Source: Sphaerolaimus hirsutus (Eukaryota; Nematoda; Chromadorea; Monhysterida; Sphaerolaimidae). From it: a stretch of DNA of 64,000 nucleotides. The translations under genes were made by a program, and so were the position numbers. This document shows, piece after piece, positions 816-60,770 of this stretch. Positions within the stretch are counted from its first letter, which is position 1, and each line of letters starts with the position of its first letter. A model generated the notes under the pieces. That model did no database searches. It was not told the origin of the DNA and was given only the letters and a program-made list of their open reading frames with translations. The stretch spans positions 7,023,855 to 7,087,854 of the forward strand of contig OZ038455.1 of NCBI GenBank assembly GCA_964036195.1, given 5' to 3'.

Positions 816-3800
816 GCGGCGATCGTGAAGGTGCTGTCCACGTGCAAATACCTGCACGGCATCTGCATCCTTATGAACTCGGCGAACAACGACCGCATGG
901 GCGTGGTCTTCAGGTACTGCTTCAACGAGCTGCTGTGCCAGCTGCACCGCAGCGCCATCGGCAACATCGTGTTCTGCTTCACACGCGGCCGCGGCGTCAT
1001 GTACAGGTGGCAGTGCCAAGCCCTGTAAAGTGTAAAGTAAAGTGTCAAATGTAAAGTCAAATGCAAAGTAAAGTGTCAATCAAAACAAAAGAAAAGATTT
1101 TATTACTGAACTTTGCATGACAATTGACAGTTTACTTTGCACTTGACTTTACATTTGACACTTTACTTTACACTTTACAGGGCTTGGGACTGCCCCCAGG
1201 CCGTCGACGGTCATGCTCAAAGAATACGCGCAGAAGTTGAAGCGGCTGCAGGACATCGAGATCGTGATCAGCGAGCACACGGTCTACTGCATGGACAACG
1301 AGGCGTTCCGCTTCCTGTGCTGCGTGCACCAGGTGCCAGTCCCGCACCCTGGAAAGTATCAAGTAGAGTATCAAGTGTCATGTAAAGTGTCATACAAATT
1401 TGATAAATTGAATGCAGTGGCAAAAGTACAGTAGTCAAATATGTATCATTGACATTTAACATGACATTTGACAGTTAACTTTACACTCTACAGTGTGCGT
1501 GACTGCCCCAGGCTATCGCATTTACTGACGAGGAGCACGATGTGTACAGCAAGAGCTGGGATCTGGCCAAAGCTGAGACATGGCGCATGTTCAAGCACAT
1601 CATGCAATTGGAGGTGCACAAGACCGAGGAGACCGTGTCGCTGCACAGCGCTCGCAGCACCATACTCAAGCTGGCCAATCCCCTGTCGAAAATCACGGAA
1701 AACATCGCCACCAACCAGGTAAATGCGCAATGTTGCAAAATTCATGTAAGATGTGGAGGACTTCAGTTGACTTGCATGTGCGTTCACAGCGATTCACCAA
1801 TGCTTTCTGACGAAATAATACCCCCTCGTTTAACCCCCGCCCCCCAACAAAAAATTTTCCCTCTGAAAAAATAACCCCCCGGGGGGTTATGCGAGGAAAT
1901 ACGGTATGTATAATACAATGTTATATTTTAAAACGATTACATTACCCTGACGCCCTCCAGACAATAATCCAAGAGAAATTGAAAGAAATCGAACGTCTGG
2001 ACAGCAACGACAAGTACTATAGAGCGAAACTGATGATGACACGAGCGGCAGTGGAGACTATTGCAATCGACTTTCCGCGGACGGTGTGCACGCACAACGA
2101 CTGCACCGAGACCAGCTCGTTGCTGAACACCAACGCCACCCAGATCGTGTACAAGACGCACTGCCACGAGCACTGCTACTTGGAGAACGTGCTGCCTGAC
2201 AGAGTGCCCAATGCAGGTGCCCATTCCGCTGGTGGAGAAGTGAAAAACAACAATTTTGACGTGAAAAGTAAAAGTCTAAGAGAAATGTGTACTTTTAACT
2301 TTTTTCTTACAGAATTTGCTTGAATAATCCCCTTTGACGGTAGAAGAGTGGGGATAATAATTCCCCCTTGGATAATTCCACCCTTAAGACCTGTGATCAC
2401 TTTGTTGTATTCAATCTTGAACAAAAGTGGCATCTTACAGAGTTGCGAAAGCGTATTTACACTTACCTGAAATACCCGGGTAAATGGGTACCTAAGCCTA
2501 CGCTTCATAAAATACCCGTACGCTTTCTCACGCTTTCCCGGCCAAAATACCCGGGTACTAAAAGCGTAAAAAAGCTTTTCACATGGTTCAGTTTCACGCT
2601 TTTGAAAAAGCGCAAAACCACAAAAAATAGTGAATGAAACTGCGTACCAAACAAAATGACTGCGTGTGTGCAGTAATGCACTGAAAAATTATGGCACGTG
2701 TACAAATTGTGCCGCAATATAAATGTCTTGTTAATACTGTGTCATCGAGTTAAATCGTGGCTTCAGATTAGAAACTTTGTGGTTGAAAATGGAGTCCTGT
2801 CAGATATTTTACGTTTTTACTAATTTTACTAGTTTCCGTTTTTACCACAAAAATACGCCACTCGTCGAATTTTGTCGCGGCAGAGAATTGTAAATTCCGG
2901 TCCCTTTGCGCTTCTAATTGCGTGCGTAATTAAATAAATAATTGTTTTTATGGTACGGGGATTTTACACGCAAATCAGGAACGGCGCCAGTACCCCTTGG
3001 GGTCCTGACAGTTCCTGAGGACGGACACGGCAACTTACCAATCCCTTTTCGTAACTGCCGCCGGCGGTTTACTTCGATTAATTGTTAATAAGCCGTAATT
3101 AAAGTAAAGCCGAAATTAATAAAATTCAAATTAAAATTTAAGCAGTTAGTATGCTTCAGGGGGGCCAAGTTGGATTCACGGGAACTTTATTTAGCAATAT
3201 ATCAGAGTCAATTTCACAATAGCTCAAGTGAGTCGTATAGCCTCTAGTGGGTGAAAAAATGTAAAATCAGCACGTTTTATAATCACCAAAAATCTACCAT
3301 AAGCGAAATGAATACTAAATCAGAGACACAACAATTAACCGTGATGAGCGAAATATAAGGCGAATTCAATGATCACTGGAAAACTGTTAACATAGCTTAC
3401 AAGGCACAAGTAATTTAATTAAATGCGGGAAAAATAACTAATTAAATAAACGGGTGCAAACGTGAATTAAACCAGACTTGGAGTAACTGCGATTATCAAT
3501 GACGTAATTAAAATGCAAATTATCTCAAAGGTGAGTGTCATAAACTGGGTTTCTATTCAGCGGTTACGGTACAGTCCAGAGCAGGTGGTGTGACACGTGT
3601 TATCAACCTGCGCCCCTTTAGGTGAAAATATTTTATAGCGCGCCCGACCAAGGCCACAGAAAGAACGCTCATTTGCGGGGGTTGTTCAAGGTTATTGCAT
3701 TGCCGGGTAAGGGTTGGAACTTCGGGTCTGAACACACGCCACAAAACACTAGCACTTGCGAGTTCACCAATCACCCTGGGTGATGGGAATAATTAATTGG

Positions 3801-6800
3801 CACTGCTGTGCTCTTCACTGTTAACTGTGCTCTGCATGTGTCTTGCAGTCGCATGCCGACAATAATTGCCGTTTGCCACTTTTCCACCCATTACCTAGTC
3901 CTAAATAAAAATGCACTTGGTCGGGGAATTTTCTGAATGTTATCTATCGGGGCGGCTAAGCATTTAACAGAGTCAACACCTTTTAGCTTAACCAGAAACA
4001 TTTGAGCCTTTCTAACCCATTCCCAGACACTGCACCCTTTTTGACCAAAAATGTAAACTTGATAAAACCTAAAAATTATAACATTCGAAAGTACATATTG
4101 GGAAATGCATTTAAAAAAGAAAACGAAAGTAGTCACTTAATTAACTAACAATGCGGGTAACCTAATTAGCTTAATTAATAAAACATGAAATGAAAAAATT
4201 AGCATCACACGGGAAGTAATTACGTAATTAACGGAAAAGAAAATAATTAATAAATTCATGGCCGCAGTAGTGTCCATTCGGGCGTACCGTCCTGGGGCTG
4301 CGGCTTCGTTGGCGGATTTGCAGTGCACAGCGAACCGCACGTTCACTGTGACTTCCCTGTGCACCGCGGGTCGTCATTCGGTCACACATGGTCGTTCTCG
4401 AGTCGTCGGAGTGTCTGCACAGAATTGTCGTTACGTTTTTACGCATGATTGGCTAGCCATATTTCCACCTACAATCCCACCAGCCATTAATTTTTTACCT
4501 CCGGGCTAAAAACGACATGTTCAGAAAAAGTGTTTTGCGCCGTTTTTTGGTTATTCAAAAGTCATGCCTTCTCTGCATTTTTCAGTGGACGGCTGTGGCA
4601 GTCACATGCCCTGGGGGTGCAAATATGGCTCGTCTTCATTTGAATTATGGCATCAGCTTTCTGCCGTGCCGGCTTTTTGTGCTCGAAACTTCGAAATTTT
4701 GGTTCCCGCTCAGGGCTCGATGTGAGAAAAAGTTTTTTCTTTTGGAAACTAATTAATCAGACTACTAATCGGTGTTATTTCACAGCATCGTGCCACTGTT
4801 GGATGGGCAGTTTGGAATCAACATTCAAGTTACCTGCTCGACCGACATGTCGCAGTCTGTGCGTGTGAAAATTGATCGTCGACAAGATTTTCTAATTGTT
4901 TTCATGGAATATTAACAAGTTTGTCTTTTTAATTACTGATTTTTTGTTACAGAGTTGTCTGTTTCTCCTGATGACGAAAGTTGTGCATGAATTATTACAC
5001 CTTAAAACTTTTATAATTGGTTTAGGCCAAAAGTTGTTTTGTATCAATTTTCACAATTACCATTTTCCATGTGGTGTTCTACCTGTTGCGCTGGAGCCTC
5101 CTCCGGTGGCAGTGGGATGGCCTCGACCGCGTCGTGGTGCTCGGGCGGCGGCGAGGGGGGCTCGGCTACGTTCTGCAGTGCCATGGCCGCCATGTCGTTG
5201 CTAATGGGGGAATATTCTTCATTAGGGCGGTAAACTGGCTCGACAACGGGCACCACTTCCTCCAACACCGGCACACCTTCCTCCCGCGCGTCTGCGGAGG
5301 AGTCAGAGCCCGCGGTGGCGGTTTCAATATCGGATAGACATTCCGCCTGCAGTTCTTCTTCAAGGGCCGGGTATCTATCCGGTCCGACTAGTTCTTTCAA
5401 GTCAGCCCGCGGGCGCCATTCCGGTGGCCAAAACCCCAACACGTTTCCCCAGATTTGGCCTGATTCGTACGAGTAAATCCGGTCGGCTTTGTGCTCGACC
5501 GTCAGAAACCGGTGGAAAAAGGTTGACCACAACATGGTCTCGGCATTGGCCACCACGATGCGCACACATTTGGCGCGGGAGGTGGCTACGTTTCCCCGGG
5601 GCAACTCCGCTACAAATCCAACTCTACCGTACGCCTTCTTGGGATCGGCATCCAGCTGGGCGGAGTCGGTTGGCGGGCTGCCGCGCACGCAGGAAATGAT
5701 GACCACTTCCGCTTCACGGGCCTGTGCTTTGTCGGCGGTAATTACGCGGGTGGCCCAGTAGGCCGCGTCGTGTTCTGTATGGGCTACTAGTCGACTGATT
5801 AGGGCGCGCGCCTGCGCCGCATAAAAGCACACAATTAGCAAACTAGCGGGATCTGTGAGATCTGCCCAGGGCAGGGTGGGATCTTCTTTCACCGTGGCCA
5901 CGAGGTAATCGTACAGGTGCAGGATGATGCGCAGCTCCTTCTTGTTGATAATGGACATGCCCTCTTTTGATTCGCAGCCCTGGTGCACCAACGTCGATGA
6001 CAGCATGACGCCATCCTCGAAGTCGCCAGGTGCGGGCAACATGGTGGCGCCGTGCGCTGCGGTGTCGTTGTAGGCGCGTAGCAGTCCATTGTACGCCGCC
6101 ACAGAGTTAGCCTGAATGAGCTGGCGATGCCCGCGGAACACTGTTTCCAAGTGAACCACGGGACATAGTTGATATTGTGTGAGCCTATCAATGAGGGTGG
6201 GGTCGGGTTTCAGGACAGGCTCCACCCAGTCTTGCACGCGAATCATACGCGTCAGCTGTTTACTGTCTCCAAATAGAAGTAGCATGCCGTTCACTGGGAG
6301 CTGAGCCGCCTGAACCACGCTAATTACGGCAGCGTCAGACGCCAAAGACGCTTCGTCAACAATTACCGCACACGCAGTCACACTTTTTATACGGGCGTCG
6401 TGGGTGGAGTCTAAAGTGACATGGATTTGACCGGGCTGCACCACTTCCAAGAACACCCGGTGCAGCCTGACCATAGCCCTGACATATTTAGACAGCGCCC
6501 TACGCAGTACCTTACCCCAAAATCCCTGGTCAGCTAAACTAGCCTCACCAGCCCGGGCGCCCGCCACGCCTGCCTCGAAGTCATCGAATGGCTGCTCGTC
6601 TCCATCTTCGGCGGTGAGAAATGGCACCTGTTCGGTCAGCTGCGCACGTATAACGGCGTCGTTCACGCAGTTGTTGATAATTTCGTCCACCAGCTCGTAG
6701 TCCTTCTTGTTGCCGTCGTACTTCTCCAGCGCTGCCGTCCATTCGGGGCTGAGGCGGACGATGTTGTGGCCGGTTCGCTGTGCTAGGGTGTGCAGGGTTG

Positions 6801-9800
6801 GCAATTGGGTCGCGGGGGTGGTATTATAAGTGGGGTCAGTTTCCCACATGGGGCTCAAAACGCGCACCGGAAATGCCGCTCTTAATTTCAAAAATTCTTC
6901 AAAACCCTCCAGTTTTTTCATTTCAGAAAATGGCGTATCAGCCATAGCGGTCCATTTCGCGCGCTCCCGCAACAAAACTTCCAAAGCCCCAAAAATATCC
7001 CGCTGCCCTAATTTATTCAGATTGGTCAGGGCCCTGCGCGCGCCTTCGTCGGCCGCCGAGTTGACCGTGCACGTGATGAGCGTCGAATGGTATTTGGCGT
7101 TCGGCTGCTTGTCCGATGGCAAGTCGGAGCCCGCGCGCACCCTGGGTCTCGAGTTATAATAATTATAGCCGCGTGAACACACATACGCCAGTTGATTTTG
7201 TGTGGTCGTCTTCCCGGACCCGAAAGGCGAGTCACACATAATCAAAAGGGGTTTGCGCATTCGCACGGCTGTGATCACAGCTCCTAAAACTTCTACCTGC
7301 CCCTGCTGCGGCAAAAACTCACCTAATTTGGCCTGAATCATTTGTTCGTTTTTTCCTCTGAACAATGATTCGTACAACTCATTAGCCTCGCGGCTAATTA
7401 GCGCCCAGTCAGTTTCGTCATCCAGCAGACGCAAATTCAATATCACAGCTAATTGGATTTGCGCCTCCAGGGTGAGTACTTTTGACCCCTGAACCACTTT
7501 TGGCACCCAGCCGACCGGCGCTTTGTTCAGGGCGGCTTGCAGTGACCGCATGGTTCGGTCATAATTGGGCGAGTCGTTTGAGCCGCGCACCATGTCTCTT
7601 CCACTCTCCAGAGTACGGGGCAGTGCTGACTGCGACGCCGCCATGTCCAACTTCGCATGCAGCATTGTAGTGGTTGGCTCTGATTCCACACTGGTAATTC
7701 TGACTGATAGATTGGGGCTGCCCGCCACTGGTTTGTCTTCGTCTGGTCTGGCCAGCACCAAGCTCAACACTGACATGGGCGTCGCCTGGTTCAACAGCTG
7801 TGTCTGCGTATTCACCTGCTCCAGCAGACGAACGCGCTGCTCTTCTGGTCCTTCGAAAGTGTCAGCTTGTAATTCTTCTGGGTCCGGGCGGCGCACCATA
7901 ATGTCGCATGCAGTGCCCTGCGGCGTGTGCTCCCAGAACACATGTGCACACACATCGGTTGCGCGTTTCGCCCGAAACCGCAAAAATGACTCGTTATAGC
8001 AGTGGGCCGCTGCTAAAATACCCAATTTATACCTGAGAAATGCGTCCATGTTGTCTCGGTTCTCTGTGTCCGGCTGGATGCCCGTTGTGCTGATGTCCTC
8101 GGCTGTGGCGACCTGCAGCCCGTACGCATGGCCGTAGAATTCGTCGCCAAACACGTCCAGATCATTCAAGTCTTGATACTCGACGTGGGCCAGCCCCAAC
8201 TGTCCAGCACTCAAATTTTCCACTCTGCTGTCACTCACATATTCTCTGTGTAAAATGACCAACTTTTCCGGCCCGGCATCGCCCCGCTCCGCCGCGCCCA
8301 GCGGTTCCAGATTTTTGTAATTCGACGGCGTGAAGGCCGCTCGCAGCCGCGCCGTTTTCCAGTCGCTCGTATAGGGCTGGTAGCCGGAAGTGTCGCCACG
8401 CGTCAATGTACGTGCCGCTTGAGTGACGCGCCGCGTGCCCTGCGTACTCACTACCACTGGGGCGGCAACGTTTAAGGGGCACTTTGTCTGATTACCCCAT
8501 ATCGCGACGCCGGTGAACTCCCAGTACCTTGGATTTTCTATTTTCTGTGCGATTGCGGTCGCCGAGAAACGCATTCCGTGGCGCACCAGGGGCAGAAACA
8601 TCGAAGGGTGTTGTTTCTGAATTCTCGCGCACAAATCCACCAGCTGGGTGGTCCGTTTGTCCCTGGCCGCCTTGGCCCGCTTATTTGAATAGTAAAAATA
8701 CGGGTAAGCCTCATCCGCATTCACCCACTGCTCATTTTCGCTGAGTATCGCCATCGTTTGCTCAGAAATTCTCACATGGCACTGATACTCAACATGCCCG
8801 TCGGCGCCCGAGTCAATATACACTCTATCTACCCAACCTTCGAATTTCCCTCTGCTGGGGTAGATTTCCGGTCCATTTTGCATCTGCTGCGCGCGGTAAA
8901 GTTGTCGCGGGGGAATGGTTCCACCGCCGCAGGCGCCATGTGTATTTGTCTCCTTGGATTTGATGGGTCTGCACCTTCAAATGGGCGTTTGCGAGAGGCC
9001 GAAGCCATTATAACATAACAATGTGATAAAAATAATTGGTTGCGAAAGTTTAATGAACGGGGAAAGCAATAAAAACTCGTGCGGTCCAGTTGCCCGTGGG
9101 CAAAAGGGGTGCACGAGCTTCCTAAAAACACACACACACTTTCACACACACATCACACCTGTTATACCTGGTTCTGTGTTGCTCGATGCGACGGCGATGG
9201 TCGTAACGGCTAATTAATCAGCTAATTAATCAATTTTAGTTGTCGCCGTATAATTCACTGTAAGAAGGGGGGATTAAATATTCACTGGTTGCTTTGCAAC
9301 GATCTGCATGAACTACATATATTTTCTTATTAATATTGTTGAACAAAGTCACTAATGGGTGGGCATAATCAATGCACTCATACGGGCCAATAAAGCGAGG
9401 CGCGAATTTCTTACTAGGGCCCGTCAACTGAGTAATACGCAGCGTGTATACGCGTACCGCTTGCCCGCGTTGCACATTCAATCGGCGCGCACGGCGATTG
9501 GCGTAAAATTGCTCTTTTTGCTGCGCCTTTGCTAGAGCGGTGTGCGCTGCTTCGCGTGCTGTGGTCAGACGCGCGCCTAATTCATTTATAAGAGCGCGCT
9601 TATGCGGCAATGAGGGCAATGCCTCGGTGTCAGGGGGAGGCTCGATCATACGTTCCCACATGGACGCAGCAGGCTTGCCAAATAGCAACGCATAGGGGGT
9701 GGTTTGCAAGGAAGGGTGTTTCGATGTATTGTACGCGTGTACAGCGGCTCCTAAATGTATGTCCCAATCGTCATGTGTACGATTTACGTAGTGTGATACT

Positions 9801-12800
9801 ATTTCCATCAGAACACCATTCCTCCGTTCCACCATTCCGTTGCTCTTGGGGGTGTACGCAAATGATGTATGTTGGGTCGCGTTCAAATATTGTAAAAGCT
9901 TGGCAAAAGTGCCCTCGGTAAAGCTAGGGGCGTTATCACTGAGTATAATGGCCGGCACACTAAATATAGGCAAAATGTGCAACAAAAATGCAAATGATAC
10001 TGTGTCTTGTTTTATGTCGGGAACGGGCACAGCAATTCCAAAACGTGTGCACTGATCAACAAATACTAACACATGTCGGTTTCTGCGTTTCGTGGTTAGT
10101 AAAGGTCCTATTGCGTCTACTGCTATCACATCACCTGGCCTTTTGGCTACCTGGCGGCACACCATTTGAGTTCGCATTGCCGCTCTGAGACCTTTCTTGG
10201 CGTTGCACGAAGGGCAGGTGGCAACCCAGCGCGCACTTTCTGGCCGCATTCCTGGAAACCACGCGAATTCCTGTAATCTTTCAAATGTTTTTATTATTCC
10301 TAAATGGCCCGCCGTGGGGTGATTGTGAGCTAATTCTAACACAAATGGAACTAATTCCGATGGAATACACACTGGGTCGTATAATTGTACACCTGGTATC
10401 TGGGACGTTCCCGCTTGTCGGCGTAATAAACCGTATTGATCAATAAAATACGGCGCGGCGCTGTAAAAATTATCTGCGCGACACACTTCTATAGTTGTGG
10501 CTATGTACGGTTCTTCTGCTTGTAGCCGTTTCAACTTATCAACCGGGGTCATGGGAGGTAGTGCCATGATTGTACTGCGCTTAGTTGCACCCGTTAAACC
10601 CGAAGCAACTCCATTTCCGGCTCCTGAACCACCAGCCATTGTTCCAGTTCCAGGCGCTTCCGCATTCCGCTGCCGCTCTCGCAGCCCGGGTGACTCCGCC
10701 TCTTTTCGCCCGCGCGTTCGGTCGCTGATTGGTCGCAGTAACTCCGCCTCCTCGTTTACGCCGCTTCGTTCGCTGATTGGCTGGTACGCTGCTCTGCTCG
10801 CCGCAGCTACCGTAACCTGCTTATCGTGCGGGATAGCGATTTCACGGCACGTAACTTGTGCGGACTGCTCAAAAGCCTCATCCAGGTCCTTTTTCTCGTC
10901 GAATACCACTGGCGCGTCTTGTCTTCTAGATAATGCATCTGCTAATTCGTTGCTTTTTCCCCTCAAGTGTTTGAACGTGATTTGGTACGGCGTAATTGCT
11001 AGAGCGAACTTGTGTAACATGGCGTGCGGGGTAGTCTCTAAATTAGGATTCTTTACCCACGAAATACTCTTGGCGTCAGTCCAAACTTCAAAGGGCCGTC
11101 CCGCCAGATAACAATGCCAGTTACGTATACTTTCGTAGATTGCACATGCTTCCAGTGAAATTGCTGGCCATTTGCTTTGGGTTGCACCTAACTTCCGGCT
11201 GTAAAAGGCACATGCATGTAGTATTTTCTCGTCCTCTGCTCGTTGTGCCAGCACGCCTGCTACGGCGATTTTAGAGGCGTCCGTGATAATTATAAACATA
11301 CGTTTAGGATCGGGAAATTGTAAACATGGGCTTCCCAACAATGCTTCCTTGAGCTTATGGAAAGCTTCCAGTGCCTTGGGTTTCGCTGTCAAATCCACCG
11401 GGGTGTCACTATTGTAATTTTCTCTTGGTCCTGTACGCGTGAGATTTGACAAAGGTACAGCTAACTCTGCGCATCTGTGAATCATGCGTCTGAAAAAACC
11501 GATAGCTCCCAGAAAACCCTTGACCTCTTTTACGGTAGTGGGTACTGGCCAGTCCTGAATTATGTGTCGTTTATCATCCGGTACGCACACGCCGTCACGG
11601 CCAATCATAAATCCTAAAAAGCGTACAGCTGTGACGCGTGCGAAAAAACACTTTTTTGGGCTAATTTTGAAATTATTCCTAATTAATCTTTCCAACACCT
11701 GCCCTATGTCATATAAATGTGTTTCCCAGGTTGCACTATAAATCAGTAAATTGTCGATGTATAATAACACATTTCGATGTATTAATCCGGCCATAGCTAA
11801 TTCAAAACAGCGCTGCGCTAAACTGGGTGAGCATTTTAATCCCATTGGTAAACGTTTCAGTTGTAATTGTCCAAAAACATTTCTAAATGACGTAATGTGT
11901 CGATCATCTGGATGCAAAGCAATGTTATAGAAAGCTTGATTTATGTCGGCACTGCTAAAAATACTTGCAGCTACATAAAGATTCGACTGTTTCATCTAAG
12001 CGGGGTAATGGGAATTGGGGAGCGTGCAAAACAGCGTTCAGGCGTCTGTAGTCAATTACCATCCGCTTTGATCCATCCGGTTTGGATACCACCAACGTGG
12101 GGGCACAATACGGGCTCGTACTGGGTTCCACGATGTCGTGCTTGATGAGGCATCTCAAATGATTTTCTAAATATTGCTGATCATCCAGACTCAACCGGTA
12201 CATTCTGCATGCAATTGGTTTTTTGTCCACTAATTGCAACCGGTAGTCCACTAATTCGCTGTAGCCGATGTCATACTTATGTCGGGCAAAAGCTTCTTTA
12301 TACTGCAAAATCACCTTTTTCAGTTCCTCTCTGCGTTCGTCCGTCAATGTTTCTGGCACAGTGAATTCCATCACGTGTCCATCTGGACATGCAACTTGCA
12401 GTGGGGGTCCTAATTTGTCTTCGGCTACTTTGGGGGGACGTTCAGTCGCTTGAACCTGTCGACACACATCTCTGTCATAGCACTGCTTCACCCATTCAGC
12501 GGGGGGGTCTCCAGGTTTCACTTTTAGCACACAGTCCACTGGTTCGACCACCGCAATGCGCTGTCCTACCTGTAGCACTACGGGCTGATTTCGTACATTT
12601 GCACATCTCACCTGAAACACAGGGGCACTAGTTTCATAGGCCGCTGAAGCAGCCATAACGCCACAGCGTTCGCCTACCGTATCCAATCCCATGACCGTAA
12701 ATAACTTTTCATCCATGGGGGCAGATAATTTCGCCGTCACTAGCGCTTCATGTCTAGCCAGAATTTCTATTTTTTTGTTCACAATGGCGTAAATTCTGCG

Positions 12801-15800
12801 CTGCTGCACTTCCGGGTCGGGGTTGTCAAATGGAATTATCGCGTTAGCCGTAGGGATTCGTAGTTCCCTTGCAGGTAGATCTACTACCATGTGCCGCAAG
12901 ACATCTGCACCAATTAGAATTTCACCAGCTAATCCGTTCACTGCCTGAAACACAATCCCGAAAGTGTGGTTTCCCATTGTTACCGGTATTTCCATCTGTC
13001 CCAATACCAAAAGTTTTGAGTCTGCTGCACACCTGAGGGCTCCAATAGGCGAGACTTCATCATGCTTAGTAGCCTTTTCCTTGTGTCGCATCAGCACGTC
13101 TCTGTTGCATAATGAACGCATGGCGCCGGTGTCCAGTAGACATCTGTGATATTCTCTCCCATCGATGGTTATGGTAATGGACGGGCTGTAATACACATGC
13201 ACAATTTCTTCACGTCGATTGGCTACTTGATGGATGTTATCTCTTTCTTCCATCGAGAAGGTGATCATGCATACCGATTCTTCTTCCCGATCGCATTTTC
13301 TGTTGATACTGTATTGTATAGCGGGAAAACGACGCGCGCCCGTGAGTGCGGGCATGCCACTTGGCATTCCCACGCACGGGTTAATTACCGTTCTTACCTT
13401 TACCTGTTCGCAAGGGCGGTCCTCAGCCAATTCGACAATGATATTGGACTTTTCTTCTGTCTTTGGTCGCCTTTTGATTTTTTCCTTTGCTCGGTTCACC
13501 AAAGTCACAGCCATTTCCGGCGCTGCGGCCATGAGCGCGGCTAGTAAATATTGCATGGTGACTAGAGCACATATCAGGTAAATCCATACTTGCAGCCAGG
13601 TGCGCCAAGTGTCAAAATCCCACCATCCCAGCGCCAATACCGATTTTGCCAAGGTTCGATGCCTTTGCATGTGTGATTCCACCTTCGGCTCCGCCCCCTG
13701 CGTAATTTGCCGCACGATTGAATATGCATGCCATACGTCATTTAGGGTGGTCGTCGGCAATAGTTCTGACAAGTTGTACATGGTCGTGGCGGCAAAAATC
13801 TGATGATGCACATCCTTAACCTTTTCCTGTTGCCATTTCTGCGGGAAACTGTGTGTGTTATACATAGGTAAATGTTCCAGGCCGCCTACTTCCGGTAGAT
13901 ATTTGTACCACTGTCCATTTAACATTACCACACGATTGTGAGCATTGGTGCATGATCCCGGGATCGCTTGAAAGTGCAAAATGTTTGTCAACCTATTCAT
14001 GTGCAACGTCACATTTTGCCTGTGTACACTAACTTGCACAGGTACTGTTTCATAGCATTCTGGAGACTTTTCCTCCTTCATGATCTCGTATGTTTTTACC
14101 GCGAAGCATTTGTGAACCAAAAATCCGTCCGGCACGGGTTTGGCAATTATTTCATTATCGTTCATGTACCAGCGGGCTGTCGTAGTGGCGTGTTCACTCA
14201 TAGCCAGGCGCACAAATTCTTGGAAGTGTTGCACATTCTTGCATGTGGCTACAGCCTGTGCACGCATGGTTTGTTCTGCTGTTTCGTATACCGCCTGCAT
14301 GCTGGCTGCTAATTGGCCTGCGCTCACTATTCCCAGCGTGGGTCGACCTTGCGCTCGTTTTTGTCTGACGCTTCGAATTACTGTCTTTTCAAATGGTGCC
14401 ACTACTATATCCTGATCCGATTTCCATAATTTGATGCCGCATGATTCAACCTCTTCATGTGCTCTGAAAGACAGTGATAGTGTATGATCATCGGCTAGCC
14501 AGATATCCTGTCTAATGCGTCCATGCATTTCACGCCATTTTTCATAAGGGCATTCCGCCTTCGGGTTCGGTTTCCATGTTAATTGGCTGCCGTCTTCTAG
14601 TGTGCATGCACCCATTTCGTAATTGCACTTACTAACCTCACCCAGCGTGCTTTGCATGGTGTTGGCTCCATATCTCATTCGTACTTCCCCTCGAAACAGC
14701 CCACAGTGTGGCGTCGTTTCACTCACCCATTTGCAACAGTACAATCCATGTCCTGAGTAGCTAACATTGGTGGGGTATTGGGTGTCCCATGCGTTGTCCA
14801 GATCACTCACAGGGGTCATGGGCCCATTGTTGCATTTATGATATTTAATCATGCCTTCGCACTCAGCGGCACCCACAGCTCGGGGGTTGGAATCAAATTT
14901 TTCCAGCGTTACGTCGCCCCAGAAGTTCTGATACGTCCTTGCCGTTCTGGTAGAGGCCACACACCTGTGCGCTGCCGCACGATATTCTACCATATTTCGC
15001 TTGTATATTGTCAGTGTCAATTTTCGTGGCCGTTCTAATGACGCCGTAGTGTCAACAATAGCCGTGCAATTTGGTAGAGGGGGGTACGTGTATAAATCGT
15101 AGTGATCCGTCAAGTCACTGCAGAGCAGTGGAAAGGAGGGCATGGTAGTCGCACCCGCGCCCGGCAATAAGGCTAATCCCATTATAATTAGCCCAACTGC
15201 CAATACAAAAAACAACGACTGTGCGACCTGGGGCATGTAGGGGGGTTCTGAGTATGCGCGCGGCGCGGGGCGCACCCCTTCCTCAGTAGACAGAAAACCC
15301 ATATACCTGTCTATCTGGTTGCTGGAGCCAGTACGCGGCGGCAGAGCGGCCGGCGTGGCGTACAAAAACGGGTCCAGACTGATGTTCATGAGCACGTCCA
15401 AGGGCACCTCAGTCAGCGTGTCCGAGTGGTCGTCTGCAGGACAATTAGGCCACAACGTACAGTCCGTTTCCTTCAAATCATGCATTCCGATCCTGCGCAA
15501 AAAGGCCAGCCAGGTAGTTCGAAACAGGTAACCCCTTTCAGTTCGCATGTATGCCCATGGTTTGATCCAGAATTCCTGCTCCTGCGCGAGCACATGCATT
15601 CCCGTAGTGCGCTGCTGCTCTTCGGGTGACTCTGGAACCAGTTCGTCAGGTTCCTCAGCCTCTAATTCCAAGCCTTGCATCACAGGGATTAACTTATTAA
15701 CGGGACATATCATCATGCAGCGATCATCTTCGCGCACATGCATGGTCATTCCAGTCGTACTGGTCACTCGCGTGGGGTTCAGCGACTCTACGTGGGGGTT

Positions 15801-18800
15801 GCTTACCTGTACCGGTTGCATGTTATATTGTTGCATGCGCCCATCCGGTCCCATAGCCATCCAATTAGCTGGCGGCGTTTGATAAGCCATCATCTGCGGT
15901 TGCATGTTCATATCGCCAGCCCTCTGTACCGTCTGCGCCGGCTGCACAGGCATCGGCTGAGCTGGTTGCCACTGCGGGTATGCGTATTGCATGGGCATCA
16001 TACCTGGCTGCATCGCTTGGGCTTGATCATTTCTCTGATAGCCACCACGTTGTCCTCCGCCGCGCCCACGTCCATTTCCTCTGGATGCTCCGCCGCCGCG
16101 GCTCCTTTTGAAATACTGTTCCCTTTGTTCTGGAGTTAGTTTGGGACACTCATATCTGATGTGCTCTTCAGAGCCACATTCCCAACATCCTTTGTCAAAT
16201 TTTCGTGGGGGCAATTTAGGGGGGTCCCTATTCAATCCCAAAAGTTTACCTTCCAACGCGCCCAGTTGCGCTAATTTCTTCGCTATCTCTTGGTGCACAG
16301 AGTCGAATTTGGCAACACTCTCAGTCATTTTCTGTTCCATTGTCTCTAACGTCTTGTCGGCCTGGGACGGCAGTCCAGCCATGGCGGGCATGTTTAGCGC
16401 CATCAACCTGTCCATTACCTTGTCTGTAGCGCTGGCAACCACGTCCTGTTTGGATTTTTCTCCCTTATTCTCAGAATCTTCCTGAGAGTATCTTCTGGAG
16501 AATCCTCTGAATTTCATTTCTCAGTCCTCCATGAAATTTTATCATGCATGTGTCACCTCGTTTTTCATGACCCATGCCTGGATAGGCGCGTTTTATCAAT
16601 TTTTCCAAACGTACCGCCCATTCCAGTACCGACTCATCTGCGCCCTGTCGCGTCTCAAAAATCTCTCTCTGTGCATGATGTTTGTCATTTGGATTTTCAT
16701 AGAACTTCTCCAGTGCTAGCATCATGTCCTTGTAGTTCAGGTCACGCAGTTCTCTGTATCGAGTGTTGAAAATGGCTCTGGCACTGCCTTTCAAAAACAA
16801 TTTTACCAGCGGCTTCCGCTCCTGTAATTTTATGCGCAGCGCGTCACATACCGTGTCCCAGCTCCTTCTCCAGTCCCTGAAACCCTCATTTGGTTTGCCG
16901 CGAAAGTATCCACATTGTTGTGCTAAGGCTGTAATGACTGCCGCATTGCTTTGTTCTAATTGCCAATTTTGTCCCGGGTCCGTGGGCCTTGCCACTTCGG
17001 ACGTAGCTGACGAGCTTCTTGAAGACGCCGGCGAGCGGGATCGAGCGCGTCGCTGCGTAACAGTTCTCACCTGGTTTGTTCCAGCTGCCGACGGGGGCGC
17101 CGCTGGTGCCGTTGATGACTGTAAAGGCGCTGCTTGACCACTGGTCAGCACTATCGGCTGCTGGCCACTGGCCGGTGAATTTCCTCCCAGCGTCGCGTTC
17201 TGATTTTGTAGGGCTTGATTATGCTGCTGGTACGCAGTCGTCAGGTCAACTATATCATCGCCATGTAAGCTGTGGTGCGCTTCGAATTCCTGCAAATAAT
17301 GTTCCACCCTAGGTACCTCGGCGACTGGGTCACTTCCCCATAAATTCATAGCAATTTTAATTAGTGTCACCATACGCAAGTCCCCTGGTTCACCATTCTG
17401 TGAGAATGCGCCAACCGGTCTCGCCTGACTCATCATGTTTGCCCATTTCTTTGCGGCTTCACATGCCTTTTTGGGTGTCCATTGTGCACAGGATGGCGTT
17501 GTTTGCACCGGGTCCAGGTCCATTATGGTAGCTTGGTAAATTAAATTCGCATTAGTGACCTTTGCGTACCTGTCTTCTAGCGCCGGGGCCGCCGTCTGGT
17601 TCGCGCCATTGTTTGTCATTCTGCTTGCGGGGCTGCTAATAATTATCACGGGGGGGTTACTTGAAATTTCGGTCTTAATTAACTGGCGTCTAGCCTTTGC
17701 AGTTGCGCTCTGCGATCTCGACTGGTCGCTTGATAAGTTCCGACTGCTGTTGCCTGACACGTCTCTCGGCGTCGAAGTGCTCTTCGGTGGGCTTAACTGC
17801 AGCGCCGGGGAAGTGTCTCCACTCTGCGTCGCTGTCTCCAACAGTTCCGCTACGGTATTTTCAATCACGGGAAATTGATCTGCAGTAGCTCCAAGCTCAG
17901 CTGCAATCAAAGGGTAATCACGTTGAATCGACGGCTGCCCTAGAGGCTCGCTGTCACCAACGTATCCGTCTGAACCGACTTCAGAACCCGATCGCACTCC
18001 AGGCGATATGGATGAGCTGCCCGCGCTCCAACCCAGTGTCCTCCGAAGCTTAGACCACTTACCTGTCTTTCCTGCTTCCTTTCCTGCAGCTTGTCTGCTT
18101 GTCCCAGGCGCTTCTTCAGCTTCTGCGCTGGACGTTAGCTGCCGTGCCGCTGCCGGTACAGCTGGCATCTTCCACTGACTAAAACTGTCTGGCGCAGGCC
18201 CTGCGCCTTCAACCGTTGATAACCTGATTACCGGTGTATCCTCAGCTGTCTGTCCAGACCAGCGTTGACTTTCACTCTCCTCTAGCGCTTCCGGCGCGTC
18301 TGTTTCAGGGTTAACCGAATCGTTCGACTCACTGTCTTCTGCTTGACCCTCAGCTGCCGCAAGTTGTGCGTCCACTTCTTGCCCAGCCTTCTGTTGTCGC
18401 GCGCGTCTTCGTGCTTGTTTTTGCTTCTCCAACGCAGCGTGCCAAACTTGTTCTATGGTGTCCCCTTGTAAGCTTGCTGGCCCCCTCGATCTCAATTCCC
18501 TTTGGGGTGATTCGTTATCCATGAAGCCGTTTTTGTAGAGGCGTTGATCAGGCGCCCCAGACAGAAAACTTTATGGCTTGCTTAGGAAACCACTCGCTAC
18601 GCTACCAGTTGTCAGATATTTTACGTTTTTACTAATTTTACTAGTTTCCGTTTTTACCACAAAAATACGCCACTCGTCGAATTTTGTCGCGGCAGAGAAT
18701 TGTAAATTCCGGTCCCTTTGCGCTTCTAATTGCGTGCGTAATTAAATAAATAATTGTTTTTATGGTACGGGGATTTTACACGCAAATCAGGAACGGCGCC

Positions 18801-21800
18801 AGTACCCCTTGGGGTCCTGACAGTTCCTGAGGACGGACACGGCAACTTACCAATCCCTTTTCGTAACTGCCGCCGGCGGTTTACTTCGATTAATTGTTAA
18901 TAAGCCGTAATTAAAGTAAAGCCGAAATTAATAAAATTCAAATTAAAATTTAAGCAGTTAGTATGCTTCAGAGGGACCAAGTTGGATTCACGGGAACTTT
19001 ATTTAGCAATATATCAGAGTCAATTTCACAATAGCTCAAGTGAGTCGTATAGCCTCTAGTGGGTGAAAAAATGTAAAATCAGCACGTTTTATAATCACCA
19101 AAAATCTACCATAAGCGAAATGAATACTAAATCAGAGACACAACAATTAACCGTGATGAGCGAAATATAAGGCGAATTCAATGATCACTGGAAAACTGTT
19201 AACATAGCTTACAAGGCACAAGTAATTTAATTAAATGCGGGAAAAATAACTAATTAAATAAACGGGTGCAAACGTGAATTAAACCAGACTTGGAGTAACT
19301 GCGATTATCAATGACGTAATTAAAATGCAAATTATCTCAAAGGTGAGTGTCATAAACTGGGTTTCTATTCAGCGGTTATGGTACAGTCCAGAGCAGGTGG
19401 TGTGACACGTGTTATCAACCTGCGCCCCTTTAGGTGAAAATATTTTATAGCGCGCCCGACCAAGGCCACAGAAAGAACGCTCATTTGCGGGGGTTGTTCA
19501 AGGTTATTGCATTGCCGGGTAAGGGTTGGAACTTCGGGTCTGAACACACGCCACAAAACACTAGCACTTGCGAGTTCACCAATCACCCTGGGTGATGGGA
19601 ATAATTAATTGGCACTGCTGTGCTCTTCACTGTTAACTGTGCTCTGCATGTGTCTTGCAGTCGCATGCCGACAATAATTGCCGTTTGCCACTTTTCCACC
19701 CATTACCTAGTCCTGAATAAAAATGCACTTGGTCGGGGAATTTTCTGAATGTTATCTATCGGGGCAGCTAAGCATTTAACAGAGTCAACACCTTTTAGCT
19801 TAACCAGAAACATTTGAGCCTTTCTAACCCATTCCCAGACACTGCACCCTTTTTGACCAAAAATGTAAACTTGATAAAACCTAAAAATTATAACATTCGA
19901 AAGTACATATTGGGAAATGCATTTAAAAAAGAAAACGAAAGTAGTCACTTAATTAACTCACAATGCGGGTAACCTAATTAGCTTAATTAATAAAACATGA
20001 AATGAAAAAATTAGCATCACACGGGAAGTAATTACGTAATTAACGGAAAAGAAAATAATTAATAAATTCATGGCCGCAGTAGTGTCCATTCGGGCGTACC
20101 GTCCTGGGGCTGCGGCTTCGTTGGCGGATTTGCAGTGCACAGCGAACCGCACGTTCACTGTGACTTCCCTGTGCACCGCGGGTCGTCATTCGGTCACACA
20201 TGGTCGTTCTCGAGTCGTCGGAGTGTCTGCACAGAATTGTCGTTACGTTTTTACACATGATTGGCTAGCCATATTTCCACCTACAGTCCGACGACGATTT
20301 TATTGCAGTCGACAGCACTAACTCCATGTTAGAAGATGAAGATGACTTAGGTGTGGCTACCGATGAATTGCCAAACAACATATGAGGGCAGCCCACAAAC
20401 TGGGCTTACGTACCCTATCCCCCCATGGACTTCTTACCCCCTGGGTTGATATAGCCCTCGAGGACTACTTCACCCGGAGGACTACTTCGGCCCGACTTTT
20501 ATAACGTGGGATGATGTAGTCCTCCATACAAAATATCTAATTACACTATTGGGGCATCTGTTGGGCCATGGGAATGTGTTTTATACTTCCTTTTATTTAT
20601 TGCGATGCAAGAACACTGCTTGCATCAGATCAAAAATATTTATTGACGCGTGGCACGCCACAATTATGCACGCGTCTGTTAGGCCTATTGACATCGATTA
20701 TCGGTGTCTCCAGTTATGGGACTTTCGCCATATTGGATTATTGCGGGGTCAATGGCGTGTGCGGAAAAATACGTCCGCCGCCCGAATTATGTAATTCGCG
20801 TGCAGACGTATTTATAATCGGATTATTGATTGCGTGGGTGAATGCATGCAACTTCAATACTCAATTTCTCGGCCATTTCTCAGCCGATTTTCACCAATGA
20901 ACACTTAAAATGATCAGAATCACATGGAGATTGCATTTTTATGTTCAGATTATTAAGAATTTGGTAAACTCATGCTAATCATAACAGACAAATCGCCAAT
21001 ATACTACAGACAAAACGCGAATGCAACACAGACAAAAAGCGATTGCAACACAGACAAAACGCCAATGGATCACAGACAAAATGCTTTGGCATTTTGCTGT
21101 GTTGCATTGGTGTTTTGTCTGTGTTGCATTCGCTTTTTGTCTGTGTTGCATTTGCGTTTTGTCTGTGTTGCATTCGCGTTTTGTCTGTGTTGAATTGGCG
21201 TTTTGTCTGTAGTATATTGGTGATTTGTCTGTCATGATTACCATGAGTTTACCAAATTCTTAATAATCTGAACACAAAAATGCAATCTCCATGTGATTCT
21301 GATCGTTTTAAGTGTTCATTGGTGAAAATCGGCTGAGAAATGGCCAAGAAATTGAGTTTTGAAGTTGCATGCATTGTTCTTCGTTTACCGTTATTCTTTT
21401 TCGTCAGATCTGATCGTTCTGATCGGTCAGAACTGATCGTTTTTTGTCAGATCTGGTTGTGTAGAGACTGCAGCAGACCCGCTGGACATCAGATTTAGCA
21501 AAGTAAATGCAGTCATATACCTGTCACCAAACAACGGAGTTGACATATGTGCGCACTGATTACTTGTTAGATACAAGGCGGAACTCGAAAAACGGTAGCG
21601 TTGGGTATATTCTAGCCTGTCGTGAAGTTCCATTCTATGCCTTCAATAAACTCGAAACTTGAAACTTACCCATGCAATCGATGCCAATAGGCCTAACAGA
21701 CGCGTGCGTAATTGTGGCATGCCACGCGTCAAAAAACATTTTTGATCTGATGCAAGCGGGTCGCGGGCAACGGGTCAATGTAAGGTCAATATAAAGCAAG

Positions 21801-24800
21801 GCCGCGTGCCGCGTGCCGCGGGTCAATGTAACGCATGCAGTAGGTAAAATATATATAATGGGTTGATATAGTCCTCATACAAAAAGGGCTGTCGGCCGAT
21901 ATAGTCCTCGAGGACTATATCATCCCCTGGGGTAAGAAGTCCATCGGGGGATAAATCCCGGTAATCCACAAACTGGACATGTGAGAGCTTGATTTGGTAA
22001 ACATTTGGAAAATTTTCACTGAACAAAAAGCCTATTTTAAAAATACCTTACGCTTTAGTATTCATACTCAAAATTTTGAAAGTGTATTTACGCTTACGCT
22101 TTCCAAAAATACCGGTATTTTAACAACTCTGGCATCTTATATTGTTAATAAAGCATATTTCGTGAAATGAGTTTACGTAAACATGCTTGTAAATGTTGAC
22201 AAAATAATTATTCCACCCTTTGAAAAATTCCCCCCTCGAATAGTTCCCCCTCAAAAAAGTGTGAAGAAAAATAATATCCCAAGGGAATTATTCGAGCAGT
22301 TACGGTAATATAATTTTACGCTTCTTTTAACTTTCATCTGACCCCAGATCTGCAACGATGCTTTGCGATGAACACAAGCGGCACTTGCAACCACTGCGGT
22401 CACAGCTGGTGGCAGTCCCGAGCCCTGTAAAGTGTAAAGTAAAGTGTCAAATGTAAAGTAAACTGTCGATTGTCATGCAAAGTTCAGTAATAAATTTTTT
22501 TTTGTTGTTTTGATTGACACATTACTTTGCATTTGACTTTACATTTGACACTTTACTTACACTATACAGGGCTTGGGACTGCCCCCTGGCAATTGCACAT
22601 GCACATACGCTACGACGTGCGCCAAACTACCGAGCAAGTCGAAAATCCGGCCATCGCGCAGTCTATCCGGGACAACTTAAGCAATAAACAGACGCAAGAG
22701 TTGGCCATCCAACAATATAAAAGAGAGAACGAGAACTATAACAATGAGATGAAGACGATCAATGAAGTCAACGCCATGTTCGCAGCTTTTCTGAGGGAAA
22801 ATGCCACGATTGCGTACAATGACGTCACCGAGGACTATCTGAAAGTGATGATCGATGAAGCTCGGATGCACTACAATGCGAGTGGAGGTTCGTTTTTCAC
22901 CTATACAGTGTTTCTTCCAATAGAAGAGTGCCGTTCTATTTTTTCATCAACTTTTTTACCTGCCGTTTTATTTGAGGAGCGGTTCTATTTTGTTCACCAG
23001 CATTTTTCACAGATTTTTCATTTGAACATTTTTAATGAAAGATGATCAAAAAATTTAGTATCAAAGTATCAATTCAAACAAATCCAAATGTGTAAACACC
23101 CTAAATTATAGTTCTGAACACATTGGATGTTCTCACAACACATTTCTCAGATACTTCTGTGTGTTTGTACTCTTCAAACGTAATTTCTACCTGCTGTTTT
23201 ATTGGAGGTGCCGTTCGATTGGAGGCTGCCATTCTATTAGAAGAAATACGTTACTCGGCTGACCGCAAAGTACGCGCCCAAAATTACCTATGTCTTAGTG
23301 ATAACGCGTGAACGGGATACTTGTATGCACTTTCAAAAAGAAGAATTTTTATAAAAAGAAAAACAACTGTATTCTTCCCGAAACGTTTTTTCTTTTTTTG
23401 TTGGAACAATTTTATTTCATTTACGATGACGTCATGATGGAGTGTTCCCTTAGGAGAAATGCAAAGCATGCGGTCCACCGATTATATTCCAAACAATAAT
23501 AGAGTCAGCTGAGAATTTTTTCCAAAATTTGTTTGCACTGGCAGAACAGCGTCAACAGAAACGTTTACATGTAAGCACCTCCCCACACAAATTTTTTTTT
23601 TTTAGGAAGCCCTATCTCCAGCTGTGTGAGGGGCTGAAAGCTAATTATTTTGTGGTATATAGGGGTGGTAACCTCCCCCTACTCCTCATGAATGGAACGG
23701 GACGCGGCGACTCACTACAGTTTGGATCACCAATACCCTATTACCTTGAAATGCCCCCATCCCCATGGGGATTCATTATTTCGCCAGCAAAATGTGAGGG
23801 GGGTTAATTCAAGGGGGGGGGGTCTATTCGAGGGAGGGGGGTATTATTTCGGCAGAAATTTTCGTAAGGATCGTAGTAAAGAGTAGGTTTTTTCGTACCC
23901 AAGACAGGTAATAAATGCGTCCAAATAGGATATATTTGGACATAAAAACGTAGATTGCTACACAAACAAGTCTATGTGTAGCTGCGATACAAATAAGCAG
24001 TAATAAATACATCATGTACATTGCATACATGCAATGATGGAAAAAACACAGAAATTGAACACAGAAACTCATTGAGTTTCTGTGTTTTTGTTTTACACAG
24101 AAACACGGAAACTCATAAACTTTGAAAAACTCAAAACTCAAATGAGTTTTTTTTGGAGAACACAGAAACACAGAAATACGGAAACACAGAATGGTTTTTT
24201 TTTGAGTTTTTGTGTTTTTTTCAGCGAAGCGGTTGAATGCACATTAATTCAGTTAAACTAAACAAGATGAGGTGAGCATGTAAATATGTAGATAATGTAT
24301 TCATATTTTATAATGATACAAAGAAGAAATTCAAGATGGCATGCACATCTCATGGTCGATTTGACAATTTAAGTTTCGACATTTAAGTATACCTTATTAC
24401 CTCGAATTAAACCTCCTTGAATTAACCCTCCACAAAATGGACTGGTGAAATAATAAGCCCCCCTCGAAATAGTCCCCTCCGGGATGATGTCCATCATGTA
24501 TCCAATGTACATGATGTATTTATTACTGCTAATTTGCATCGCAGCTACACATAGACTGTACTAGGTTGTGTAGCTATCTACATGTTTATTTCAAATATAT
24601 CCTGTTTGTACGCATTATAACTTGTTTTGGGTACGTAAATGCCTACTATTTTCTATGATCCTTACAAAACTTTCTGATGAAATAATAAACCCCCATGGGG
24701 GTATTTTGAGGTAAATGGTAGTTGTAGTTCAAATCAATTCCGTAGTCTTCCATACAATGCACATCCATTGAAGAATTTTGGAGTACTGCGTAAATTGTCG

Positions 24801-30653: not shown

Positions 30654-30660
30654 TATAAAA
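30654..30660 (+). promoter_or_regulatory. TATA box of the orphan polymerase-like ORF
   Basis: CCCTATAAAAGGATG lies 41 nt before the ATG at 30701. A start around 30684 would fall on 'gttcattc', similar to an arthropod-type initiator, leaving a very short leader. Confidence 0.5.
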
Positions 30661-30700
30661 GGATGCACTTTTGCCAATTAGTTCATTCAATTTGAATAAA

Positions 30701-60238: not shown

Positions 60239-60770
60239 ATGAGCAATACTACACCACTTCGGAACACACGTTCCACAAATCCCAATTTGGGTCAAGCGTT
60301 GAGTACACGCGAATTCTTTGAAGAAGCCGAGCGGCTACGTTACGAGGCGGATGGCTATGGAGCCCGGACTCGAATGAGTTCCACAGTGCCTCTTCATGAT
60401 CAAATTTCCAAATACAATTACCAAATTTCCTCCATTCTTATTAGTATATCACAGACTGCCACAATTGAATCAATTTACATCAGCAATTTTAAGTGAACAT
60501 AATCCTCAAAAAATTTGGCGCACAGCCAAATATAACACCGAAATGGCTAAACAAAAATATGTGAATTGGTTCAATAACCACAGGCATTCAAAAACCTTGG
60601 ATAACATTCAAGTTGGTGATTTAGTTATGGTAAAATCAAATAATTCATCTAAATTAGATGTAAAATATTCCGGCCCATATAAAGTTTTATCAATCAAAAA
60701 TAATTTAGTAACTGTGAAAAATGAAACTGATTCAACTGTTGACGACAGCGAAGTTCGATTGGAAAGATAG
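60239..60770 (+). pseudogene. internally deleted retroelement: short N-terminal ORF joined to an integrase C-terminus
   Basis: An ATG at 60239 opens about 60 codons (MSNTTPLRNTRSTNPNLG..., REFFEEAERLRYEADGYG). In the next frame 60396-60770 ends with KQKYVNWFNNHRHSKTLDNI, VGDLVMVKSN and KYSGPYKVLSI, the GPY/F-type end of a retrotransposon integrase. Protease, RT and the integrase core are missing. The preceding 'ggtggtggagagggac' (60101) could be a PBS. No LTR pair identified. Confidence 0.5.

What the first reader, a model, noticed from the sequence alone, without database searches (positions are those of the whole stretch)
2798..20285. LTR retroelement that carries its own full-length superfamily 1 helicase gene
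The 1,279-codon ORF at 8883-5044 lies between integrase and the 3' LTR, in the same direction as gag and pol, inside perfectly matched element borders (TG...CA LTRs, GTCC duplication). All SF1 motifs are present and the frame is intact, although RT in the same copy is damaged, so the ORF has not decayed noticeably since insertion. Ty3/gypsy elements normally encode no helicase and I know of no described LTR element with a Upf1-like one. It could assist reverse transcription of an unusually long (17 kb) genome, act on RNA surveillance, or be a captured host gene.
Basis: partly seen in the sequence, partly recalled or inferred. Interest (0 to 1): 0.93.

Follow-up and report, generated by a model that had tools for sequence, protein, structure and literature searches.

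The report
Retrovirus-like element carrying a helicase gene
A young 17.5-kb retrovirus-like element in the DNA of an unidentified eukaryote carries a complete gene for a nucleic-acid-unwinding enzyme, which I found in no described element of this kind, and has an envelope-like gene in an unusual place.

Summary
Window 2798-20285 (minus strand) is one Ty3/gypsy-type LTR element: two 1,676-nt LTRs with 7 mismatches, TG...CA ends, 4-bp GTCC duplication. Between integrase and the 3' LTR lies an uninterrupted 1,279-codon ORF with superfamily-1 motifs in order; Pfam AAA_12 E 5.5e-25. The core looks SF1B; no UPF1-type zinc cluster was seen. The only strong splice-acceptor-like site of the internal region, by a pattern fixed after a first look, lies just before the helicase gene. 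Helicase codon use is nearer to a few host exons than that of gag, env or pol, which suggests later capture. No relative of the helicase was found; a second copy could not be sought (genome search did not complete). Ten paper searches showed no LTR element with such a gene. A new variant of a known kind; function unproven.

The parts
2794..2797 (.). target-site duplication, left copy (GTCC)
2798..4473 (-). 3' LTR, 1,676 nt
   Evidence: 99.58% identical to 18610-20285
5044..8883 (-). SF1B helicase ORF, 1,279 codons; N-terminal ~540 aa without significant match, core ~545-1130, acidic tail 1140-1279 (pI 4.06)
   Evidence: AAA_12 5.5e-25, motifs, PDB ranking, N-terminus, tail
9258..9273 (-). splice-acceptor-like site TCCCCCCTTCTTACAG, 374 nt before the helicase ATG; the only one of this strength in the internal region
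   Evidence: 1 found, 0.036 expected in the 717-nt junction, 18 of 500 shuffles have one; pattern chosen after the looser scan, which listed 13 distinct acceptor-like sites
9236..11995 (-). ORF of 919 aa: RT C-terminal part (YIDN at residues 79-82), RNase H, integrase (H2C2 and rve)
11955..16517 (-). ORF of 1,520 aa: nucleocapsid CCHC (111-124), envelope-like region, aspartic protease, N-terminal part of RT
   Evidence: the CCHC and protease Pfam matches are below their cut-offs
13518..15215 (-). envelope-like region inside that ORF (residues 435-1000): signal/TM-like 435-453, RQKR 718-721, Monjiviricetes_fusion match 619-877, second TM-like stretch 981-999
   Evidence: no match among solved chains
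16471..18522 (-). gag ORF, 683 aa (Retrotrans_gag 24.2 bits, cut-off 24.1; PNMA 23 bits, cut-off 25)
18057..18065 (-). splice-donor-like CAGGTAAGT inside gag
   Evidence: only exact copy in the internal region; the looser scan listed 15 distinct donor-like sites in the element
18590..18609 (-). candidate primer-binding site ACTGGTAGCGTAGCGAGTGG next to the 5' LTR; tRNA not identified
18610..20285 (-). 5' LTR, 1,676 nt
20286..20289 (.). target-site duplication, right copy (GTCC)

Best explanation
The locus is a young, now defective, retrovirus-like Ty3/gypsy element with the order LTR-gag-NC-env-PR-RT-RNaseH-IN-helicase-LTR. The helicase is an accessory gene of the element, captured from a cellular (or other) SF1B helicase after gag, env and pol had come together, and it occupies the 3' slot where env usually sits. 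I think it is made from a spliced mRNA and acts on the element's own RNA: as a 5'-3' translocase it strips or remodels ribonucleoprotein on a ~16-kb genomic RNA, and so shields that RNA from host RNA surveillance (NMD- or MOV10-like) and/or helps its export and reverse transcription. Shown: borders, gene order, SF1 motifs with an AAA_12 core, the intact frame. Inferred: capture, splicing, polarity, and every step of function.
For: Inside matched LTRs and target duplication. Sense direction, intact 1,279-codon ORF with SF1 motifs in order, AAA_12 5.5e-25. Solved-chain ranking 8ftm group, UPF1, NAM7, SMUBP-2, and the IGHMBP2-family model as best NCBIfam match point to SF1B. Sole strong acceptor-like site of the internal region lies 374 nt before the helicase ATG. 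Codon usage nearer to host exons than gag, pol or env: median r 0.63 against 0.27-0.45, bootstrap P(helicase <= other) 0.0025-0.048, on only 359 host codons. Accessory ORFs in the 3' slot, and host-interaction domains in Burro, are in print (PMC6431247, passages and section 7; PMC5408684, passages). A C. elegans LTR element makes an RNA-export factor from a spliced mRNA (PMC10309623, abstract and passages).
Against: One copy only; no other copy or host genome reached. The splice signals are motif matches found after looking, among 13 acceptor-like and 15 donor-like sites by looser patterns; a 59-codon upstream ORF starts at 9008 and overlaps the helicase start. The helicase's codon use is also close to that of the 1,520-aa ORF (r 0.82). 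Apart from the 8ftm group, solved-chain matches are weak (UPF1 E 0.018; the chain named SEN1 E 0.61). No expression or activity data. The structure prediction of residues 480-1160 failed (mean pLDDT 32.9). The host is unknown.
Confidence: 0.45

Rival explanations
1. Chance transduction: this copy (or a small subfamily) picked up a host helicase mRNA, as acutely transforming retroviruses pick up host genes. The gene is cargo without a role in the element's cycle.
For: Intron-free ORF with host-like codon use, different from gag and pol; only one copy is known; the intact frame needs no selection at this age.
Against: Gag, env and pol regions are all still there, whereas transducing retroviruses often lose such genes (recalled). 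No close cellular relative of the helicase was found among 7,992 and 6,143 scored candidates, although a recent capture should have relatives in related species if these are held. An acceptor-like site stands upstream.
Confidence: 0.25
2. The helicase is a replication factor only: it unwinds structured RNA or RNA-DNA hybrid so that reverse transcriptase can copy an unusually long genome.
For: Element length 17.5 kb; SF1B enzymes such as Sen1 unwind RNA-DNA hybrids (recalled).
Against: Burro elements exceed 30 kb with no helicase named among the domains described in the section read; the gene is outside the pol polyprotein, so packaging is not assured.
Confidence: 0.2
3. Assembly or nesting artefact: a host helicase gene lies between two LTRs by misassembly or nested insertion.
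For: Helicase GC3 0.64 differs from RT-IN 0.44.
Against: Target duplication and LTR identity hold for the whole unit; the ORF is in sense, in the accessory-gene slot, 352 nt after pol and 570 nt before the 3' LTR; no other LTR copy or ORF fragment of the element was found in the window.
Confidence: 0.05

Closest known systems
Burro giant gypsy-like elements of planarians (PMC6431247, section 7 read; primary paper not held)
   Same: Gypsy-like, very large, env region with hits to mononegavirus fusion glycoproteins and lying in frame between gag and pol; extra host-interaction domains
   Different: Burro: >30 kb, one ~4,900-aa ORF1, dUTPase, BCL2, ankyrin, BIR and MATH domains, no helicase named in that section. 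Here: 17.5 kb, none of those domains among Pfam matches at E <= 1, separate helicase ORF at the 3' end
R1/TRAS LINEs of insects with SF1 helicase domains (PMC5563155 and PMC6338049, passages; PMC4686597, start of abstract)
   Same: Retroelement that carries a full SF1 helicase domain
   Different: Non-LTR element; helicase is a domain of an ORF protein and is traced there to (+)RNA viruses, not to the AAA_12 (SF1B) kind
Bdelloid rotifer LTR elements with enzymatic ORF3 (PMC5408684, passages)
   Same: Extra enzyme gene in the 3' slot of an LTR element
   Different: GDSL esterase or DEDDy exonuclease; the one occurrence of 'helicase' in the text is in a reference title
Cer1 of C. elegans with CERV (PMC10309623, abstract and passages)
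   Same: Ty3/gypsy element with an accessory protein, made from a spliced mRNA, that is needed for genomic RNA export
   Different: CERV is called a novel protein; 'helicase domain' does not occur in the paper
Anakin, mosquito BEL/Pao elements with a chuvirus glycoprotein (PMC7642597, passages)
   Same: LTR element with a glycoprotein taken from a Monjiviricetes-type virus (class membership recalled)
   Different: BEL/Pao, not Ty3/gypsy; 'helicase' does not occur in the paper
Cellular SF1B helicases: Sen1/SETX, UPF1/NAM7, IGHMBP2/SMUBP-2
   Same: AAA_12 core and motif order
   Different: No UPF1-type zinc cluster, ~284 residues between motifs I and II, unmatched ~540-aa N-terminus

Membership tests
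Ty3/gypsy (Metaviridae) LTR elements | order PR-RT-RNaseH-IN | tested here: met
   order of Pfam matches in the 1,520-aa and 919-aa ORFs; RT, RNase H and IN pass their cut-offs, the protease does not
Ty3/gypsy (Metaviridae) LTR elements | RT/RNase H closest to Ty3 | tested here: met
   among solved chains Ty3 Gag-Pol scores best, 189.4 bits, then 4ol8 at 146.9 (Ty3 by recall), then other chains from 87.2 down; no tree was built
Ty3/gypsy (Metaviridae) LTR elements | LTRs TG...CA with a 4-6 bp target duplication (range as in PMC12440569 abstract) | tested here: met
   TG...CA, 4 bp
SF1B helicases (Sen1/UPF1 group) | AAA_12 core and SF1 motifs | tested here: met
   AAA_11 is below its cut-off and only the 8ftm group passes 1e-3 among solved chains
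SF1B helicases (Sen1/UPF1 group) | 5'-3' translocation, ATPase | not testable with these tools
   needs protein
SF1B helicases (Sen1/UPF1 group) | predicted fold | tested here: inconclusive
   single-sequence model of residues 480-1160, mean pLDDT 32.9
UPF1 proper | Cys/His-rich zinc-binding domain before the core (recalled) | tested here: not met
   pattern scan of residues 1-540 gave two isolated Cys/His pairs and no cluster
Burro elements | env in frame between gag and pol | tested here: met
   one ORF runs NC-env-PR-RT; but capsid is in another frame here
Burro elements | dUTPase between PR and RT; BCL2, BIR, ankyrin, MATH domains; >30 kb | tested here: not met
   none among Pfam matches of P0001-P0004 at E <= 1; 17.5 kb
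Retrovirus-like (env-bearing) elements | fusion glycoprotein with signal, cleavage site and C-terminal TM | tested here: inconclusive
   Pfam Monjiviricetes_fusion 27.5 bits in the piece (cut-off 27), 26.7 in the whole ORF; TM-like stretches and RQKR; the same crude scans also give TM-like stretches and RXKR/RXRR sites in ORFs without env; no solved chain matches

The most novel reading that the evidence does not exclude
A family of retrovirus-like elements has fused env into the gag-pol polyprotein and given the freed 3' slot to its own SF1B helicase, a dedicated enzyme that protects or remodels the element's genomic RNA; as far as ten paper searches show, it would be the first LTR retroelement described with its own helicase gene.
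Probability: 0.4. Interest if true: 0.85.

Novelty: new variant of a known kind. Interest (0 to 1): 0.7.

Why it matters
A review listed (PMC3484045, start of abstract seen) states that HIV-1 encodes no helicase and must use cellular ones. An LTR element with its own SF1B helicase would make testable what such an enzyme adds: evasion of RNA surveillance, export, packaging or reverse transcription. The in-frame envelope would be a second case of the gag-env-pol layout described for planarian Burro elements.

Tried and rejected
Other copies: the genome search on the window's own assembly did not complete in 16 tries. Within the window no further LTR or ORF fragment of the element was found.

Relatives: 0 confirmed loci in viral contigs for the helicase, its core, ORF2 and the env region (7, 8, 9 and 2 pattern matches) and 0 in prokaryote genome contigs for the helicase (11 pattern matches). 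These negatives are limited to relatives sharing 5-residue words and to E-values scaled to 5.8 billion sequences. phrog_25411 (unknown function, 3.4e-5) and PADLOC MkoA (5e-16) also match the helicase; I take both as shared SF1 core.

Structure: no usable model, so no fold search was made. No tree of helicases or RTs was built. Weak norovirus-protease matches at residues 250-338 of the helicase ORF (E about 0.5) and a 'DSGA' near its N-terminus were taken as chance. The short ORF MESDDDF... that appears when the two flanks are joined was not identified. tRNA and Rfam scans of the window found nothing. The tRNA behind the candidate primer site was not identified.
Full report
What is there. On the minus strand the window holds a complete LTR element, 20285 down to 2798. 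The two LTRs are 1,676 nt each with 7 mismatches, the ends are TG...CA, and GTCC flanks both sides. Four long ORFs follow each other in the sense direction: gag (18522-16471, 683 aa), a 1,520-aa ORF (16517-11955), a 919-aa ORF (11995-9236) and the 1,279-aa ORF (8883-5044). Pfam matches above cut-off are Retrotrans_gag in the first (24.2 against 24.1 bits), RT, RNase H and integrase in the third and AAA_12 in the fourth. In the second, a zinc knuckle and an aspartic protease match below their cut-offs; a CCHC pattern at 111-124 and an LLDTGA string read (protease motif by recall) support them. The RT N-terminal part at the end of the second ORF matches Ty3, as does the RT-RNase H part of the third.

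The helicase. AAA_12 scores 88.5 bits (E 5.5e-25) and motifs I, II, III, IV, V and VI can be read in order (motif names and consensus are recalled; V and VI deviate a little). Among solved chains, 8ftm, 8fth and 8ftk ('5'-3' RNA helicase-like protein'; that this is Sen1/SETX of Chaetomium is recalled) are the only ones past 1e-3 (8e-6 to 4.5e-5); UPF1 (0.018), NAM7 (0.027) and SMUBP-2 (0.06) follow, and the chain named SEN1 comes last at 0.61. NCBIfam's best is the IGHMBP2-family model, 51.8 bits against a cut-off of 348.9. I read the core as SF1B. The first 520 residues have no significant Pfam match, residues 1-540 show no zinc cluster as in UPF1, and the last 140 residues are strongly acidic (pI 4.06). 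No relative was found in viral contigs, prokaryote contigs or the protein database, so neither a tree nor dN/dS could be made.

The envelope. Residues 435-1000 of the 1,520-aa ORF look like a viral fusion glycoprotein: a strongly hydrophobic stretch at 435, RQKR at 718, a second hydrophobic stretch at 981, 4 N-glycosylation sequons and 17 cysteines. The same crude scans also give a hydrophobic stretch in the integrase region, two weak ones in the helicase, and RXKR/RXRR sites in the 919-aa and helicase ORFs, so these features alone prove little. Pfam Monjiviricetes_fusion matches at 26.7 bits in the full ORF (just under the cut-off of 27) and 27.5 bits in the piece. No solved chain matches (best E 0.43, CD44) and no viral contig was confirmed. 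The region is in one frame with nucleocapsid, protease and the start of RT. [quoted passage not shown] This element shares that layout but shows none of the other Burro domains. From the order of hydrophobic stretches I infer that a full translation product would have gag and pol on one side of a membrane and env across it.

State of this copy. Two frame changes separate capsid from nucleocapsid and split RT, and the YxDD box of RT reads YIDN. This copy is defective, or the assembly has errors; I cannot tell which. LTR divergence gives about 0.2% change per copy since insertion, about 8 substitutions in the helicase ORF and a 0.72 chance of no new stop. The open frame thus shows that the source element had an intact helicase ORF, not that selection acted after insertion.

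Origin and expression. GC3 is 0.64 in the helicase, 0.49 in gag, 0.44 in RT-IN, 0.51 in env and 0.78 in the host exons. Codon-usage correlation with the host exons is higher for the helicase (median 0.63) than for the 919-aa ORF 0.35, the 1,520-aa ORF 0.45, env 0.44 and gag 0.27; bootstrap P 0.012, 0.048, 0.037 and 0.0025, uncorrected. This rests on 359 host codons that I picked by eye as one gene, and GC3 probably drives it. Against it, the helicase is closer still to the 1,520-aa ORF (r 0.82 against 0.72 with host). I read it as capture from a cellular gene after the rest of the element was assembled, with moderate confidence. The sole strong acceptor-like site of the 14.1-kb internal region lies 374 nt before the helicase ATG (1 found; 0.51 expected in the whole region over 100 shuffles, 0.036 in the junction over 500), and the only exact CAGGTAAGT lies in gag. 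The pattern was fixed after a looser scan that listed 13 acceptor-like and 15 donor-like places in the element. These fit a spliced helicase mRNA but do not prove it.

Surroundings. Exon-like pieces on the plus strand at 816-2215 and 22593-22889 flank the element, so it may lie antisense in an intron of a host gene; that the pieces form one gene is my reading, and none reached a Pfam cut-off. The host is unknown.

Print. Ten searches of an open-access library showed no LTR element with an SF1 helicase gene in the titles, abstract starts and passages I saw; two lists were capped (20 of 28; 20 of 35). Closest are SF1 helicase domains in insect LINEs (passages). The primary Burro paper is not held and most subscription journals are missing from the library, so absence from print is not shown.

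Verdict. Observation confirmed; interpretation partly supported. A Ty3/gypsy retrovirus-like element with an accessory SF1B helicase and an in-frame envelope-like region is a new variant of a known kind. The mechanism proposed (remodelling and protecting its own RNA) is inference.

Noticed in passing
window 13518-15215 (minus): Envelope-like fusion glycoprotein in frame between nucleocapsid and protease; in what I read this layout is described only for planarian Burro elements.
   Followed up: partly
window 1006-1200, 1330-1511 and 22408-22592: Intron-like stretches of the host gene that form hairpins; the first and third share terminal inverted repeats (75-nt arms, 95% complementary, at 1006-1197; 30-nt arms, 90%, at 22408-22586), the second is a weaker hairpin (77% over 56 nt). 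Introner-like, intron-generating elements (term recalled). Other inverted repeats, not shown to be introns, lie at 51570-51677, 53260-53468, 54164-54353 and 57103-57266.
   Followed up: partly
window 816-2215 and 22593-22889 (plus): Exon-like pieces on both sides of the element; the element may sit antisense in an intron of a host gene.
   Followed up: partly
window 9008-8829 (minus): 59-codon ORF starting MASASRKRPFEG... that overlaps the start of the helicase ORF in another frame; upstream ORF or a remnant of an N-terminus.
   Followed up: no
window 30659-32155 (plus): 498-aa ORF with very low GC3 (0.26) and no Pfam match; reminds me of Maverick/Polinton polymerase N-termini (recalled, untested).
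   Followed up: partly
window 60378-60767 (plus): 130-aa ORF with weak, below-cut-off matches to integrase C-terminal domains; perhaps the end of another retroelement.
   Followed up: no
window 20841-21375: Inverted repeat with 244-nt arms, 94% complementary, built on 22-nt tandem repeats.
   Followed up: no
window 57425-59342: About 1.9 kb array of a degenerate 14-nt unit ACGCCAAACTTTCC with higher-order periods.
   Followed up: no
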